Assembly: GCF_002943425.1 (NCBI RefSeq)
Contig: NZ_PTRA01000001.1
Coordinates: 1,426,001-1,490,000 of the forward strand
Reading direction: 5' to 3'
Origin: Siphonobacter curvatus
GTDB lineage: Bacteria > Bacteroidota > Bacteroidia > Cytophagales > Spirosomataceae
Length of the DNA stretch: 64,000 nucleotides
How positions within the stretch are numbered: the first letter of the stretch is position 1; each line of letters starts with the position of its first letter. The position numbers were made by a program, and so were the translations under genes. Below are positions 8,762-29,794 of this stretch, piece by piece. Under the pieces are notes generated by a model. It worked only from the letters and a program-made list of their open reading frames with translations. It was not told where the DNA came from and made no database searches.

Positions 8762-10411
8762 ATGAAACAGGATGAAATAATTAATGAAATTGAAGAAATG
8801 ACATCAAATTATAATTTTATTAATTTGATAGTAATGATTATTTTTAGGGATTTTGTTGGTACTATTGAAAGTTTATCAAACTATGATAGAAATAAAAATT
8901 TAAATTATAACGAGCTTTCCTATTTGATAGGATTATGGATTAAGAATGCAAAAAATAATAAAAAAATAGATATTAATTTAAATAAACAAATACCTATTGT
9001 CTATGATTTAATGTATAGATTGCATAGGACATTTCTTCCGGATTTGTCGGCATTATTTGAAGATTCTAATAATCATAAAGATACTAGTGATTTAATGCTA
9101 CAAAAAGATCCATTAAGAGAGGCATTTTTTTATGGACCATGTGGTGCTTATGATTATCAATATTCTACGAATTCTTTTAATAAATATAAATATGATATTG
9201 AATGGATTAAAAAAGAGAAAGGATTTAATTTAGACTCCTTAAATAGTTTTTTTCTTAATATAAAAAACACTATCAATGTGAAAATAAATATATTGAAAAA
9301 AGACAGAAAAAAAAGATATTCAATCAATGAAATGTTAGGTTGTTTAATCATGACACATGAAGAGCTAGTAGGGGCGAATGTGGACTTTGATTTAATAGCT
9401 CAATGTTTTACATGTGAACTAGAGGGGGGGTATAATAAATCATTAAGATTGGTTGGGGATTTTAATGAATTTAGTGTTAAGCCAATAATAAAGCTTGGAA
9501 AAAAATTCTTTATTCCAATGCCATTTTTTCTAGCTGAATCTATTTATGATTCTCCATTTTATTGGATGGTAACCGATAAAAAGTATTTTTCAACTTGCAC
9601 CACCAATAGAGGTAAAATAGCTGAGGAAATAGTATATGACTTACTTATTGATAAATTTAATCATAGTGACGTTTTTAAAAGTATTAAAATTAAAAAAGAT
9701 AAAAGCCAGACGGATGTTTCCGATATAGACGTTATGGCTATAAATAACGAAGATTTATTGCTGTTTCAAATAAAGTCTAAAAGAATTACTTCGTTGGCTA
9801 GGCAAGGCGATGTTGAAAAATTAAAAGAAGATTTTAAGAAAGCTGTTGAAGATGCTTTTGTGCAAGGAATAGAGTGTTCTAAGGCTATTTATAATTATGA
9901 AAATTATAATTTTTTGAATAGTGATGGTGTGGATATAAGAGAAAAGCTTAAGAGCGTAAAAAACATATATGTGATATGTGCTTTACTAGAAGTATTTCCA
10001 GCAATACCACATTTATCTCAATTTTTGCTATATGAAAAATATGCTGAATCTGGTGTTTGTATAAATGTTTTTGATTTGGAGATTATTTGTAAATTATTAA
10101 AAACTCCTAAGAAGATTATAGACTATTTCTCTAAGAGAATTAATAACTGTAGGCATTATTATGCTGACAGTGAAATGAGTTTCTTAGGATTTTATATAAA
10201 TCATGATTTGAAGAAACGTACTGAATATGATGTTTGTGTAATAGATAATGCATATGCTGGTAATATTGATAAAATTTATTACTCTGAAAATCAAAACGAA
10301 AAAATATATAATACGATTCCAAAAATAATTGAATCAAGAAAACAAATAGGTAGAAATGATCCTTGCCCATGTGGGAGTGGTCAAAAATTTAAAAAATGTC
10401 ATGGGAAATAA
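8762..10411 (+). CDS. AT-rich cargo gene: PD-(D/E)XK-like nuclease with SEC-C motif
   Basis: A 549-residue protein from the ATG at 8762; the frame is open farther upstream but that part overlaps the baseplate gene in another frame. Residues about 283-345 carry a restriction-endonuclease-like pattern: Glu288/Glu289 in GKIAEEIVYDLL, Asp321/Asp323 in SDIDVMAI, then Gln336-x-Lys338 in LLFQIKSK, matching the E...D...(E/Q)XK order of PD-(D/E)XK nucleases. The C-terminus has a SEC-C zinc motif: Cys535, Cys537, Cys546, His547 in CPCGSGQKFKKCHG. The gene is far richer in A+T and in AAA, AAT and ATA codons than its neighbours, marking horizontal acquisition. Single cargo genes between virion genes ('morons') often protect the host; a defence role is inference. 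Nucleic-acid cleavage is predicted from motif order only. Confidence 0.65.
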   Translation: MKQDEIINEIEEMTSNYNFINLIVMIIFRDFVGTIESLSNYDRNKNLNYNELSYLIGLWIKNAKNNKKIDINLNKQIPIVYDLMYRLHRTFLPDLSALFEDSNNHKDTSDLMLQKDPLREAFFYGPCGAYDYQYSTNSFNKYKYDIEWIKKEKGFNLDSLNSFFLNIKNTINVKINILKKDRKKRYSINEMLGCLIMTHEELVGANVDFDLIAQCFTCELEGGYNKSLRLVGDFNEFSVKPIIKLGKKFFIPMPFFLAESIYDSPFYWMVTDKKYFSTCTTNRGKIAEEIVYDLLIDKFNHSDVFKSIKIKKDKSQTDVSDIDVMAINNEDLLLFQIKSKRITSLARQGDVEKLKEDFKKAVEDAFVQGIECSKAIYNYENYNFLNSDGVDIREKLKSVKNIYVICALLEVFPAIPHLSQFLLYEKYAESGVCINVFDLEIICKLLKTPKKIIDYFSKRINNCRHYYADSEMSFLGFYINHDLKKRTEYDVCVIDNAYAGNIDKIYYSENQNEKIYNTIPKIIESRKQIGRNDPCPCGSGQKFKKCHGK

Positions 10412-25650: not shown

Positions 25651-26005
25651 TCGATTAACCGATAAACGACCGGGCCGACCAAGCCGCGACGTGGAGCCGA
25701 CCACGTGGCGGCTTGGTCGGCCCGCCAACTTTTTAAGGGGTACCCACCCCGCCGACCGACCGGCCCAGCCCGAAATCTCAATTCAGCCATTCGAGAAAAT
25801 CAAAAATGGAAATTTCCAAAATGTTATAGGGCGGGCGGAAAAGAGAGAAAAATTGAGGTTTAAATGTGTTTATGTAGGGCAAATGATTGATTAATAGATT
25901 GTTATGAAAGAATGCTTATAAAAAAGAGTGCAACTTTTTTAACAATCTGATAATGAGATTTATATTTAAAAATTCCTAGTAGCCCATATTTTAAGATTTA
26001 CTGAT
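25651..26005. other. Gap between terminase and AT-rich cargo
   Basis: 355 bases without a gene. The first 90 hold a long hairpin (25672-25723). Then comes a GC-rich stretch (to about 25785) and, after about 25785, an abrupt change to AT-rich sequence continuous with the cargo genes. The last 90 bases probably contain the cargo promoter; no clear TAnnTTTG match is seen. Confidence 0.6.
25672..25735 (+). terminator. 23-bp hairpin after terminase
   Basis: Arms at 25672-25694 and 25701-25723 pair with a single mismatch across the six-base loop AGCCGA; a short T run (25730-25734) comes seven bases later. Unusually long and GC-rich for a terminator; it may also protect the mRNA or mark a packaging or recombination point. 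Confidence 0.75.
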
Positions 26006-26446
26006 ATGTCCTATAAAGACTTGTTTACTAATCCAGCACCTTGGATATTGCTAGGAGCTCTAAGCGGTGCAATATTATACTTTAGCATCTACAAGAGATT
26101 GCCCGCAAATTTTCTCACTAATCCTGCCACTTGGGTTTTTATAGGTGCATTAGTTGGAGCAATAGGTTCCATGTCAGCATCTATACAGCAAGATATAGAT
26201 GCTGAAAATCAAAAAAAGTCATTAAACGATATGAGAGATGATATTATAAAAAGACAAAAAGATTTAAATGATAAGAATGAAGAGATAAAATTAAATTTAG
26301 AAAAGGTTAATGCTTCGTCAAAGGATCAATTAGAGCAACAGAAAAAAATAAATGAAAAAAGTGAGCAAATAGCGATACTGCAAAAAGATTTACGGCTTAA
26401 GAGCGAAGAAATATCTCAAAGTATTACGGGCGGAAATGGTTACTGA
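26006..26446 (+). CDS. Cargo membrane/coiled-coil protein, N-terminal part (stops at in-frame TGA)
   Basis: 146 residues up to a TGA at 26444-26446. Two membrane segments (about 10-28 and 40-58) are copies of each other: NPAPWILLGALSGAI and NPATWVFIGALVGAI, 30 residues apart. A long charged coiled coil follows (about 65-138). The next gene starts in the same frame only six bases after the stop, and the joined sequence (ITGGNGY, stop, FAMIFG) reads as one protein; related proteins in Bacteroidota, as I recall, have Cys in this place. So this is likely one 301-residue gene broken by one base change, or two separately translated halves. AT-rich; partner of the putAbiC-like gene. Confidence 0.6.
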   Translation: MSYKDLFTNPAPWILLGALSGAILYFSIYKRLPANFLTNPATWVFIGALVGAIGSMSASIQQDIDAENQKKSLNDMRDDIIKRQKDLNDKNEEIKLNLEKVNASSKDQLEQQKKINEKSEQIAILQKDLRLKSEEISQSITGGNGY

Positions 26447-26452
26447 TTTGCT

Positions 26453-26911
26453 ATGATTTTTGGAAACAATAGTAGTGAATTAGTTGATATATTAGTATAT
26501 AACAAGGGAGAATATCCATTGCATGATTTAACTGTATCTATAATCGATGATGATATCAAGACGATACCGTATGATGGAAAAAAATCTGTAGCAGAATTCG
26601 CTAAGCAGCACGATAATTATCAGGTAAATATTAGTATAGGTAATATGGCTAAAGGCAGTGGGAGGATAATTGGACAAGTATTAGCAAATAGACATCAAGA
26701 GAAAACGTATAAGCTTTTCTTTAGTGCATTAAATGGTAATTGGACTCAAAAACTTAAATTAGCTTTTGATAAAAATGGTCACGTAGCATATGCTAGTATT
26801 GTATACAAAACAGTTATAAAAGGTAGTAAGGTTGAATATATTAAGCTTGAGGAATTGCAGCAATTTGAATATCCAAAAAGTAAAAACGAATTAAATTGGA
26901 GGTTTAACTGA
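26453..26911 (+). CDS. Cargo protein, C-terminal part of split gene
   Basis: 152 residues, same frame as the preceding part. Beta-rich and soluble: VDILVYNKGEYPLHDLTVSI, QVNISIGNMAKGSG and KTYKLFFSALNGNWTQKLKL give the pattern of a small beta-sandwich placed after a coiled coil, probably a sensor or binding domain outside the membrane helix bundle. It stops four bases before the next start. Could be expressed on its own from the ATG at 26453, since Bacteroidota need no Shine-Dalgarno sequence. Confidence 0.55.
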   Translation: MIFGNNSSELVDILVYNKGEYPLHDLTVSIIDDDIKTIPYDGKKSVAEFAKQHDNYQVNISIGNMAKGSGRIIGQVLANRHQEKTYKLFFSALNGNWTQKLKLAFDKNGHVAYASIVYKTVIKGSKVEYIKLEELQQFEYPKSKNELNWRFN

Positions 26912-26915
26912 ACAC

Positions 26916-27998
26916 ATGGCTACTAAAAAAGAATTTAAAATGATGTCACTAGGTATGACAGTTTTAATAATATTTTGTGCCTTTTTAATTCTTAGTATGC
27001 CATATTTCCTTATTAAAAAGTCTTTTATAGGGGGAATGGATTTTACAGGAACAGGTCAAATTGGTGATACTATAGGCGGGATAACAGCACCATTTATTGG
27101 GATCGCAACGTCTGTTTTGACATTTTTAGCTTTTTTCGTTCAGTATAAATTCAATATTCAGCAGAATGAGAGAATTGATAAGCAAGATGAAGAAATCAAA
27201 ATTGACAAGTTTGAAAATAGATTCTATAGCCTTTTATCTATTTTAAGAGAAAATATCGCAGAGATTTCAATTAAGGATGAGTATAAATCTAGAAGAGCTT
27301 TTGTGTATATGTTTAATGAATTTAGATTTTGCTATTATGAATTATCTGTAATCAATGTAGAAAACAGATATTGTTTATCTGAAAATGAATTGACTAATAT
27401 TTCTTTTCTAGTTTTTATGTTTGGCATTGGCAATACCTCTGATGATGTTATAATTAGTATCCTAGAGCCTAGATTTAAAGATTTATTAATAAATTATCTA
27501 ATGAGATTAGAACAAAAACAAGAGATATGGAGCGAGTCAATGGTTAATAATTTCGCTAATATTGAAGAACAAGATAAAGTGCCAGGGAAAATAATTTTGA
27601 AATTAAATGATGAACTAGATAGGAAAATAACTTTTATGTCAAAATATAAGCCTTTTGCAGGTCATTTGTCAAGGTTAGGGCATTATTTTAGACATTTATA
27701 TCATATTGTTTCTTATGTCGAAAACTCTACATTGAGTGAAGATAATAAAAAAGACTATATAAAGACTTTGAGAGCCCAATTATCTGCTCACGAACAATTA
27801 TTGCTATATTATAATTCTTATACATCTTTAGGTAGTAGCTGGCGGTCTAATGATAATGGTAAAAATTTATTATTAGAATACAAATTATTAAGAAATATTC
27901 CAATTCCATTAGCTGATTTTGGGCCAAAAATTAGAGTTGAGTATGATGAGCCAAACTATTTTGAGTGGGAACAAGTAGAAGAGTTATTTAATAGATAA
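26916..27998 (+). CDS. Putative phage abortive-infection membrane protein (putAbiC-like)
   Basis: A 360-residue protein. Two N-terminal membrane helices (about 11-33 and 53-77; GDTIGGITAPFIGIATSVLTF) are followed by a short coiled coil and a helical cytoplasmic domain with FENRFYSLLSIL (99-110), GHLSRLGHYFRHLYHIVSYV (249-268) and LRAQLSAHEQLLLYYN (285-300). This order matches the family 'putative phage abortive infection protein' (Pfam putAbiC), related to lactococcal AbiC, which stops phage growth by a poorly known mechanism. The gene is AT-rich like its upstream partners and lies next to the integrase end, the usual cargo place. Defence function is inferred from family and place. Confidence 0.75.
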   Translation: MATKKEFKMMSLGMTVLIIFCAFLILSMPYFLIKKSFIGGMDFTGTGQIGDTIGGITAPFIGIATSVLTFLAFFVQYKFNIQQNERIDKQDEEIKIDKFENRFYSLLSILRENIAEISIKDEYKSRRAFVYMFNEFRFCYYELSVINVENRYCLSENELTNISFLVFMFGIGNTSDDVIISILEPRFKDLLINYLMRLEQKQEIWSESMVNNFANIEEQDKVPGKIILKLNDELDRKITFMSKYKPFAGHLSRLGHYFRHLYHIVSYVENSTLSEDNKKDYIKTLRAQLSAHEQLLLYYNSYTSLGSSWRSNDNGKNLLLEYKLLRNIPIPLADFGPKIRVEYDEPNYFEWEQVEELFNR

Positions 27999-28122: not shown

Positions 28123-28150
28123 AAAAGGTTGGTATTTATGCCAACCTTTT
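28123..28150. terminator. Intrinsic terminator after cargo genes
   Basis: AAAAGGTTGG (28123-28132) pairs with CCAACCTTTT (28141-28150), with A run before and T run after, so it can work in both directions. Confidence 0.8.
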
Positions 28151-28281: not shown

Positions 28282-29493
28282 TCATTTAACAAGTTTATAC
28301 TCTTTCGGCTTCAAACGACCTAATTCCAGAGCTACGCGGCGTTCGTCGGGCTTGCCGTAAACCTCCAAACCCCGCGTACTTTTTCGTCCTAGCATGACAG
28401 CCACTGCCTCTTTCGTCAAGCCCAGTTCATTAAGTGCCCAGTCCGTAAACGTCTTACGACCTATTTTTATACTCAATTTTGAAGCTAGAGGCTCTGGAAA
28501 CTTCAAATAAGCCGCCAGTACCTTTAGCCAGTCGTTCATCGTTTTATTTGACTTTATGGGTAATTTCTCCCAGCCGCCGTATTTATCTATAATCGGGCGG
28601 ACTTCATCAAAAACAGGTAATTTGGCTTTAACCTTCGTTTTTACACGTGGGTGCGTAATCCATTCCTGATCGTCAATGCCCAGATGAACCCGAAACTCGG
28701 CAAGTCGGGCCATATCTTTTAAATCCTGATAGTGAAAGCCGGTTTTACAGTATACGAAAAATACGTCGGCGACTTCCTGAAGGGCTACGTTATCAGTTTG
28801 GAAAGTTCGTACGGCCTCCAGCATTTCTGGCGTAAGGTGTAGCGGGTCTTCTAAGGCTTCGTTTTTTACTCTAAAGCCTACTAGTAAGTCTTCTTCAGCC
28901 ATACCAGCACCGGGAGCCCACTTGGTTACAGCCTTTAGTACCTGGCTATGCTTACGTATGTAGCTGGGCTTATGTTTTTTTGTTCGTTCCATCCAACGCC
29001 GGTACTTTTTCAGCATCGCCACGTCGAACAGTTCCAGCGGTAGATCTACTTGTTTTTCAGAAATAAGAAAGTCAATCAGCTTTTTACGCACTTTGTCATA
29101 CGTTTCAGCTGTGGATACGGTAAGATTAGGGTTTTCTACTATTTCTTCTTTATGCCACCGGCTGAAGGCTTCCAAAAATGTATAGGTGCGTTTAGGGTTG
29201 CGAAACGTCTTCTTGACGTGCTCAACGTTAAACGGTTTACCGAGTCTGAAAAAATCGTTGAAAATGGCCGTTAGCTTCATTTCGAACATTAGCAACTTTT
29301 CATTTTTAAATTGGGCTAGTGGGTCGGCTTGGCTGACTCGTTTTCCATTCCAATGATCGGAAAGGATTTTAATTCCAGTCGAGCCAATTTCTAAAGTGCG
29401 GTTATCCATTGAAATTTGACAGTATAGGGTTGAATAACCGGGAGTTTTTGAAGTGTGGCGGAAAAACGAAATTTCCATTTTTGAATACTTCAT
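28282..29493 (-). CDS. Divergent tyrosine recombinase (phage integrase)
   Basis: 403 residues from the ATG at 29493; ten more in-frame codons upstream are possible but look non-coding. N-terminal arm-binding part (about 1-100), SAM-like core-binding domain (about 105-205), catalytic domain (about 220-395). The tyrosine is Tyr379 in GLEVYGK, and Arg346 in IGRKTF fits the second arginine. The first arginine position holds His254 (TGFHYQDL), and the usual histidines hold Lys343 and Arg370 (MLGRKS). The fold is clear but the active site is non-standard. It reads toward the cargo, with the tRNA on its other side, as expected of a tRNA-targeting phage integrase. Confidence 0.8.
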   Translation of the reverse strand: MKYSKMEISFFRHTSKTPGYSTLYCQISMDNRTLEIGSTGIKILSDHWNGKRVSQADPLAQFKNEKLLMFEMKLTAIFNDFFRLGKPFNVEHVKKTFRNPKRTYTFLEAFSRWHKEEIVENPNLTVSTAETYDKVRKKLIDFLISEKQVDLPLELFDVAMLKKYRRWMERTKKHKPSYIRKHSQVLKAVTKWAPGAGMAEEDLLVGFRVKNEALEDPLHLTPEMLEAVRTFQTDNVALQEVADVFFVYCKTGFHYQDLKDMARLAEFRVHLGIDDQEWITHPRVKTKVKAKLPVFDEVRPIIDKYGGWEKLPIKSNKTMNDWLKVLAAYLKFPEPLASKLSIKIGRKTFTDWALNELGLTKEAVAVMLGRKSTRGLEVYGKPDERRVALELGRLKPKEYKLVK

Positions 29494-29568
29494 AGCGTGA
29501 ACGCCCGGCGAGGCCGCCCACAATGTATGAGATTTGGTAAGATGAAAAAGCGGAAAAACAGCTAAAGG

Positions 29569-29681: not shown

Positions 29682-29709
29682 GTCAAAATCAAGTCTTTTT
29701 CAAGATTTG

Positions 29710-29794
29710 CAGAGGGTGAGGGATTCGAACCCCCGGACCTGTTACAGTCAACAGTTTTCAAGACTGCCGCGATCGACCACTCCGCCAACCCTCT
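29710..29794 (-). tRNA. tRNA-Ser (UGA), likely prophage attachment site
   Basis: 85-base cloverleaf on the minus strand. Acceptor AGAGGGT/ACCCTCT, discriminator G, class II long variable arm (GACTGTAACAGGTC), T arm GGGGG-TTCGAAT-CCCTC, anticodon loop CTTGAAA with anticodon TGA. CCA is not encoded. Its 3' end faces the integrase and the prophage, the standard arrangement for integration into a tRNA 3' end. The matching copy of the 3' end at the other prophage border is not in this window. Confidence 0.93.

What the first reader, a model, noticed from the sequence alone, without database searches (positions are those of the whole stretch)
25990..27998. AT-rich prophage cargo: duplicated-helix coiled-coil protein plus putAbiC-like membrane protein
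Three close-set open frames (26006, 26453, 26916) form one strand-uniform unit, much richer in AT than the phage around it, between terminase and integrase. The last matches the putAbiC family; the first two are a membrane/coiled-coil protein followed by a beta-rich domain. This suggests a two-component membrane defence module in which one partner senses and the other stops growth. The pairing and function are inference; the putAbiC likeness is family knowledge.
Basis: partly seen in the sequence, partly recalled or inferred. Interest (0 to 1): 0.75.

Follow-up and report, generated by a model that had tools for sequence, protein, structure and literature searches.

The report
Prophage-borne membrane defence gene pair
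A sleeping virus in a bacterial chromosome carries two AT-rich membrane-protein genes, one related to known phage-blocking proteins and one from an unnamed family that is cut in two by a stop codon here, and together they look like a small anti-virus cassette rather than a new kind of system.

Summary
The unit is real, but it is two genes, not three. ORFs 26006 and 26453 share one frame and are one gene (A) cut by an in-frame TGA at 26444-26446. A Siphonobacter relative (G180) has an intact 301-aa copy, 70% identical, directly followed by the same second gene. Gene B (26916-27998) is a putAbiC protein (Pfam E 1.3e-21). In both genomes the pair sits beside an orthologous integrase at the same tRNA-Ser; in G180 only a terminase-end remnant of the rest of the phage was recognised there. 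In three other Siphonobacter genomes this site holds OLD/AriA-like, NACHT or HNH genes. I read the pair as integrase-adjacent defence cargo.

Gene A is TM + coiled coil + beta-sandwich, from a family without a convincing profile match in Pfam, NCBIfam, PHROG or PADLOC, usually found without putAbiC. The pairing is not general: gene A neighbours 1 of 80 putAbiC loci, and putAbiC neighbours 1 of 16 gene-A loci (the same locus).

Most likely: membrane-anchored abortive infection with putAbiC as effector, gene A as an accessory that is probably crippled here. The sensor/effector division is inference. New variant of a known kind.

The parts
25671..25724 (+). GC-rich hairpin just after the terminase-like gene, CTTTTT a few bases on; possibly a terminator that isolates the cargo
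   Evidence: inverted repeat I3, 24-nt arms, 96% complementary; RNA fold of 25655-25745 -55.3 kcal/mol, z -7.9. Against: not listed by the terminator scan, whose rule wants the T run closer
25928..25969 (+). AT-rich block kept between the window and G180 upstream of gene A; probable promoter (TATATTTA resembles the Bacteroidota -7 element, recalled)
   Evidence: alignment A6; sigma-70-like TTAACA/TATATT at 25939-25966 (20 such sites found there, 13.3 expected, so weak)
26006..26911 (+). Gene A, one reading frame: membrane segment(s), coiled coil, beta-sandwich with a G[GK][DN]S[FY]C motif in most relatives; broken by an in-frame stop in this genome
26444..26446 (+). In-frame TGA, at a column where 7 of 11 aligned relatives have cysteine; next ATG begins 6 nt after it (26453)
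   Evidence: present in the IMG/VR record too, but that record equals the window over 7957 bases and is probably the same genome
26916..27998 (+). Gene B, putAbiC-family protein of 360 aa with two N-terminal hydrophobic helices and a conserved C-terminal helical domain
28123..28150 (+). Terminator-like hairpin between gene B and the convergent integrase
   Evidence: 2 terminator-like sites found, 1.4 expected
28282..29523 (-). Phage integrase (Phage_int_SAM_5), orthologous in G180 (74% aa identity)
29709..29794 (-). tRNA-Ser(TGA), the presumed integration site next to the integrase

Best explanation
A two-gene anti-phage (superinfection-defence) cassette carried by a Siphonobacter prophage in a cargo slot next to its integrase. 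Gene B (putAbiC) is a two-pass membrane protein whose conserved helical domain (G-H-x-x-R-x-x-H-Y-x-R-H-L ... R-A-Q-L-S-x-H-E-Q) most likely acts during infection by another phage to stop phage replication or cell growth from the membrane, as AbiP-type proteins do. Gene A is a membrane-anchored coiled-coil protein that holds an Ig-like beta-sandwich on a long stalk; it most likely oligomerises and serves as the accessory or sensing partner of gene B. In this genome gene A is cut by a stop, so gene B probably works alone or the cassette is weakened. Shown: gene structure, family of gene B, predicted folds, conservation at the same site in a second species, purifying selection on both genes, defence-type genes at the same site in siblings. 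Inferred: defence activity, the membrane mechanism and the division of labour.
For: putAbiC PF16872 1.3e-21 and PADLOC AbiP 4.5e-9. Pair adjacent in G180 at the same tRNA-Ser beside an orthologous integrase; of 24 window phage proteins only the integrase and the terminase end match in the 18 kb fetched there, and a host gene that also flanks this site in G000, G176 and G177 closes it. dN/dS 0.07 and 0.17 for the parts of gene A before and after the stop, 0.23 for gene B, 0.08 for the integrase, synonymous sites near saturation so the ratios are rough. A kept upstream block and hairpins on both sides. Same site in other Siphonobacter: G178, in a related prophage (9 window phage proteins besides the integrase match), has an AT-rich AAA_15/AriA/OLD-like gene next to and convergent with its integrase; G177 has NACHT+SNaCT5 and DUF4365 genes, G179 an HNH gene. 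putAbiC elsewhere has restriction-modification-like genes within two genes in at least 8 of 80 loci (labels by eye). AF2 models: gene B pLDDT 90.7, gene A relative 71.7 with a beta-sandwich. Prophage defence hotspots of about 1-5 kb, some near integrases, are described (PMC9122126, passages).
Against: The pairing is not seen outside Siphonobacter (1 of 80 putAbiC loci; 1 of 16 gene-A loci), and putAbiC or gene A were not found in the site stretches of G176-G179. Gene A is interrupted here. No PDB match for either model at E <= 0.001. The experimentally studied prophage protein PdpSau, the nearest functional analogue found, shows no sequence relationship to putAbiC. No catalytic activity could be assigned. 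The phage gene beyond the cargo differs between the window and G178, so the slots are alike only in lying next to the integrase. No phage-challenge data are in hand.
Confidence: 0.55

Rival explanations
1. Two independent passengers: putAbiC is a complete one-gene defence protein and gene A a separate one-gene phage cargo (for instance a superinfection-exclusion membrane protein) that merely share a promoter.
For: putAbiC stands without gene A in 79 of 80 loci; gene-A family members stand without putAbiC in 15 of 16 loci in the DNA held, one in a related phage (L035, four homologues of window phage proteins), one beside a homologous integrase (L068), two in IMG/VR contigs. Gene B is intact here while gene A is broken.
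Against: The two stay adjacent, a few bases apart, in two species separated by near-saturated synonymous change, while most of the phage is gone from the site in one.
Confidence: 0.3
2. Stop-restart split: the TGA with an ATG 6 nt downstream makes gene A into a membrane/coiled-coil piece and a free beta-domain by termination-reinitiation, and both are functional.
For: Methionine at codon 150 is absent from the 11 aligned relatives; the frame after the stop is still open for 154 codons with dN/dS 0.17.
Against: A single recent nonsense change or an assembly error explains the same facts; no independent sequence was available; selection over the whole divergence cannot date the stop.
Confidence: 0.1
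3. TGA is read as selenocysteine or otherwise recoded at a cysteine column.
For: The stop stands at a column with cysteine in 7 of 11 relatives.
Against: No SelB over the cut-off (best 192.2 bits, cut-off 242.25) and no tRNA-Sec over the gathering score (best 41.3, needed 47; the best match lies on the tRNA-Ser beside the integrase).
Confidence: 0.02
4. Lysis or morphogenesis accessory (spanin- or holin-like) rather than defence.
For: Weak Rz-spanin-like PHROG matches to the TM/coiled-coil part (best of these 0.0053), position in a phage.
Against: I judge coiled-coil matches of this strength to be due to composition; own upstream block, AT-rich cargo composition, retention where the phage is largely gone, putAbiC partner.
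Confidence: 0.06

Closest known systems
putAbiC family, PF16872 (Putative phage abortive infection protein)
   Same: Gene B matches profile positions 2-77 of 80 at 1.3e-21; same conserved residues across 70 aligned sequences
   Different: Here paired with gene A; the family name rests on annotation, and searches for putAbiC and PF16872 in the held paper library gave no paper
Lactococcal AbiP (and AbiC) abortive infection proteins
   Same: PADLOC AbiP profile matches residues 253-301 (4.5e-9), AbiC profile 61-301 (1.3e-4); AbiP is described as membrane-anchored and nucleic-acid binding (as cited in PMC10127798, passages)
   Different: Only a 49-residue core matches AbiP; two hydrophobic segments in gene B
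PdpSau, S. aureus prophage abortive infection protein
   Same: Prophage cargo, membrane-anchored, stops a competing phage (PMC10127798, passages)
   Different: No sequence relationship found: no Pfam putAbiC match, hhalign probability 0.1 (I took the 278-aa frame downstream of the amidase-type gene of phage 80alpha as PdpSau)
Prophage/satellite defence hotspots (P2, P4, Vibrio and Bacillus prophages; PARIS)
   Same: Variable 1-5 kb cargo between conserved phage genes, some near integrases (PMC9122126, passages); AAA gene with a PADLOC AriA match next to the integrase in G178
   Different: Host group, phage type and contents differ
LeoA/LeoBC (PADLOC)
   Same: ORF1 of gene A matches LeoBC at 1.8e-6 (25.3 bits, residues 18-130) and LeoA at 1.7e-4
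   Different: The match covers only the last fifth of those profiles (463-581 of 601) and the coiled coil; I take it as composition, but it was not tested further

Membership tests
putAbiC (PF16872) | Profile match above the curated cut-off | tested here: met
   77.3 bits against 22, E 1.3e-21
putAbiC (PF16872) | Conserved core residues | tested here: met
   G170, G249, R286, E293, W309 invariant and H256, Y257, R259, H260, H292, Q294 among the near-invariant in 70 sequences
putAbiC (PF16872) | Abortive infection activity | not testable with these tools
   no experiment
AbiP | Full-length AbiP profile match | tested here: inconclusive
   49 of 223 profile positions, 4.5e-9
AbiP | N-terminal membrane anchor | tested here: met
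   two hydrophobic segments 15-33 and 56-74, long N-terminal helices in the model
AbiP | Nucleic-acid binding | not testable with these tools
   none
PdpSau | Sequence relationship | tested here: not met
Conserved two-gene system geneA-putAbiC | Recurrent adjacency in unrelated genomes | tested here: not met
   1 of 80 and 1 of 16 loci, the same Siphonobacter locus; in 222 genomes of the family both match in 2, G000 and G180
Prophage defence hotspot | Different defence-type genes at the same place in related genomes | tested here: met
   3 of 5 sibling genomes at the same tRNA-Ser carry AAA/OLD-like, NACHT or HNH genes, one carries the pair, in one no cargo was seen; the HNH case is the weakest (3.4e-6)
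HEPN ribonucleases | Rx4-6H motif in a HEPN helical bundle | tested here: inconclusive
   R286 invariant and H292 near-invariant, but no HEPN match in Pfam or in the 50 fold-search rows shown; the motif rule is recalled

The most novel reading that the evidence does not exclude
Gene A founds an undescribed family of phage-borne anti-phage membrane proteins (TM anchor, coiled-coil stalk, Ig-like tip with the G[GK][DN]S[FY]C motif), found in Bacteroidota genomes and in two viral contigs, one of them beside a P2-like gene (by eye); in Siphonobacter it has recruited putAbiC as a growth-stopping effector, and the tip recognises a product of the incoming phage.
Probability: 0.3. Interest if true: 0.65.

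Novelty: new variant of a known kind. Interest (0 to 1): 0.42.

Why it matters
If true, it adds a family without a convincing profile match to the proteins that phages carry against each other, and points to one chromosomal site in Siphonobacter where five of the six genomes examined hold phage-derived or defence-type cargo. That gives a small, testable set of genes for finding new anti-phage systems in Bacteroidota. The in-frame stop also gives a natural test of whether putAbiC works without its partner.

Tried and rejected
Selenocysteine: rejected. PDB sequence searches for both proteins: only weak or coiled-coil matches. Fold searches against PDB: nothing at E <= 0.001; gene A only beta-sandwich folds of several kinds. 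One viral match at 9.5e-5 to an unnamed BFVD protein (A0A6G5YMH7) was not followed. PADLOC LeoBC (1.8e-6) and LeoA (1.7e-4) and the Pfam/PHROG matches to ORF1 were set aside as coiled-coil matches. Plasmids: no ORF2 match, two distant putAbiC matches; no match of the L176 relative in plasmids or phages. Phages collection: no gene-A match, one partial putAbiC match. IMG/VR scans with ORF3, ORF2 and the putAbiC alignment found only the window's own prophage. Of the 34 of 390 order genomes that matched A1 I looked at seven further loci, kept five as members and dropped L076 and L081; the other rows, which match only the coiled-coil part or a short stretch, were not examined. In one search the G142 match and the second G213 match were dropped as coiled coil by eye. 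Phylum scan with the C-domain: 3 of 392 genomes, own included. Of the two IMG/VR pattern scans (four loci), two loci held no family member (L175, L178). The tRNA 3' end is not repeated in the 19.5 kb to the left that I fetched, so the left attachment site was not found. The DefensePredictor paper (PMC13092281, passages) does not mention AbiC.

Full report
What is there. The window belongs to a Siphonobacter-like genome: G180, in the same genus by the tool's kinship label, has a contig of the same length and range as a record titled uncultured Siphonobacter sp. in the named collection. G180 encodes one 301-aa protein, 70% identical over the whole length; 301 of 301 codons align without indel. 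The stop lies at a column where 7 of 11 aligned relatives have cysteine. SelB and tRNA-Sec do not reach their cut-offs in this genome, so the TGA is most simply a true stop. The IMG/VR contig that holds the same TGA equals the window over 7957 bases and is probably the same genome, so it is no independent confirmation. An ATG begins six bases after the stop, at a codon that is methionine in none of the 11 relatives; restart is possible but not shown.

Gene B. It matches putAbiC (PF16872) at 1.3e-21, shares a core with the PADLOC AbiP model (4.5e-9, residues 253-301) and matches AbiC weakly. PHROG 8999, of unknown function, matches its N-terminal part (residues 5-147, 5.5e-24). A model from 70 sequences has pLDDT 90.7: long N-terminal helices with two hydrophobic segments, then a largely helical domain. 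Invariant or nearly invariant residues include G249, H256, Y257, R259, H260, R286, Q288, H292, E293 and W309. No solved fold matches at E <= 0.001.

Gene A. A membrane part with two helices that repeat each other in sequence (11 of 17 residues, by eye; only the second passes my hydropathy threshold), a coiled coil and a beta-sandwich (model of the intact relative, pLDDT 71.7, pTM 0.51, four sequences; the first 65 residues are poorly modelled). Most relatives in the alignment show one hydrophobic segment (read by eye). No Pfam match for ORF1, ORF2 or the G180 protein reaches a curated cut-off; NCBIfam gives no match up to 0.1 for the read-through protein. For ORF2 PADLOC gives nothing and PHROG at best 0.078; for ORF1 PADLOC gives LeoBC at 1.8e-6 and LeoA at 1.7e-4, and PHROG at best 0.0012, which I take as coiled coil. 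By profile I confirmed 16 loci of this family besides the window: 14 in genomes of the own phylum and two in IMG/VR contigs, one beside a gene that I recognise by eye as P2 gpJ-like. L035 holds four homologues of window phage proteins and L068 a homologue of the window integrase. Only L030 (G180) has a putAbiC gene in the DNA held; several loci have flanks of 1.5 kb or less and L177 is only 1.5 kb long, so more distant partners could be missed.

Pairing. In 222 genomes of the family, gene A matches 9 (one judged chance) and putAbiC 16 (15 over the cut-off); only G000 and G180 have both. The scan with the putAbiC alignment confirmed 88 relatives, of which the tool returned 80; gene A is found in 1 of those 80, again G180. 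More frequent putAbiC neighbours, within two genes, are restriction-modification-like genes (two clusters, 8 of 80 loci) and a gene with an ILGAGAS motif (5 of 80) (labels by eye; Pfam and PADLOC gave nothing for two examples of the latter).

Site. The unit lies between a GC-rich hairpin after the terminase-like gene (fold z -7.9) and the convergent integrase next to tRNA-Ser(TGA). G180 has the same tRNA, neighbouring host genes and integrase (74% aa identity) and the pair; of 24 window phage proteins only the integrase and the terminase end match in the 18 kb fetched, and a host gene that is also near this site in G000, G176 and G177 closes it. All six Siphonobacter genomes have the CBS-type gene with this tRNA beside it. 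G178 has a related prophage (nine window phage proteins besides the integrase match) with an AT-rich AAA_15/AriA/OLD-like gene next to and convergent with its integrase; the phage gene beyond the cargo is a different one than in the window. G177 has AT-rich NACHT+SNaCT5 and DUF4365 genes next to the tRNA; G179 has an HNH gene followed by genes that look phage-derived by eye; in G176 I saw host-like genes only. Gene A and putAbiC were not found in the stretches of G176-G179. This is the pattern described for prophage antiviral hotspots (PMC9122126; passages read), and NACHT proteins are described as antiphage (PMC12169576; start of abstract in the search listing).

Selection. Against G180, dN/dS is 0.07 before the stop, 0.17 after it, 0.23 for gene B and 0.08 for the integrase, with synonymous sites near saturation, so the ratios are rough. 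Gene B (45% identical) and the part of gene A after the stop (61%) change fastest and the membrane part of gene A slowest (86% over residues 1-65), which fits surfaces that meet phage products, though it is no proof.

How it likely works. I favour membrane-anchored abortive infection with gene B as effector and gene A as an oligomeric accessory or sensor. For the general membrane mechanism the guides are AbiP and the analogue PdpSau, in whose presence phage replication stalls and membrane potential changes (PMC10127798; passages). PdpSau shows no sequence relationship to gene B, so this is a likeness of action only.

Limits. The terminase label rests on motifs read by eye (searches gave no support). 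The left end of the prophage was not found. Nothing here tests defence. Searches of the open paper library for putAbiC and PF16872 gave no paper; most subscription journals are not held.

Noticed in passing
window 8846-10411 (+): A second AT-rich island (about 28% GC) in the same prophage encodes a protein with a NERD-like region (E 0.003, below cut-off) and a C-terminal SEC-C motif (2.3e-10); probably another cargo gene, since the neighbouring phage genes lie side by side in the related G178 prophage.
   Followed up: partly
L137, L138, L139, L133, L146 (and L049): A gene with an ILGAGAS (SIR2-like by eye) motif recurs within two genes of putAbiC in five of 80 loci, in three of them overlapping its frame by 32 bases; a commoner putAbiC neighbour than gene A. 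L049 shows a similar gene (by eye). No Pfam or PADLOC match for two examples.
   Followed up: partly
L190 12799-13866: The G178 prophage has a second AT-rich (26% GC) frame of 355 aa, membrane-like by eye, between two genes whose homologues touch in the window; no Pfam or PADLOC match.
   Followed up: no
L194 7165-7653 and 14887-16710: Left of the window: a short frame homologous to the window integrase (3.7e-50), perhaps a truncated integrase of an older insertion, and a 27% GC frame of 607 aa without Pfam or PADLOC match.
   Followed up: no
window 25800-25816 and 29468-29484: A 17-base perfect inverted repeat joins the stretch upstream of the cargo with the start of the integrase gene; the upstream copy lies in a block kept in G180.
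   Followed up: no
L004/L031 (G213): Another gene-A relative also has an in-frame stop within its matched stretch.
   Followed up: no
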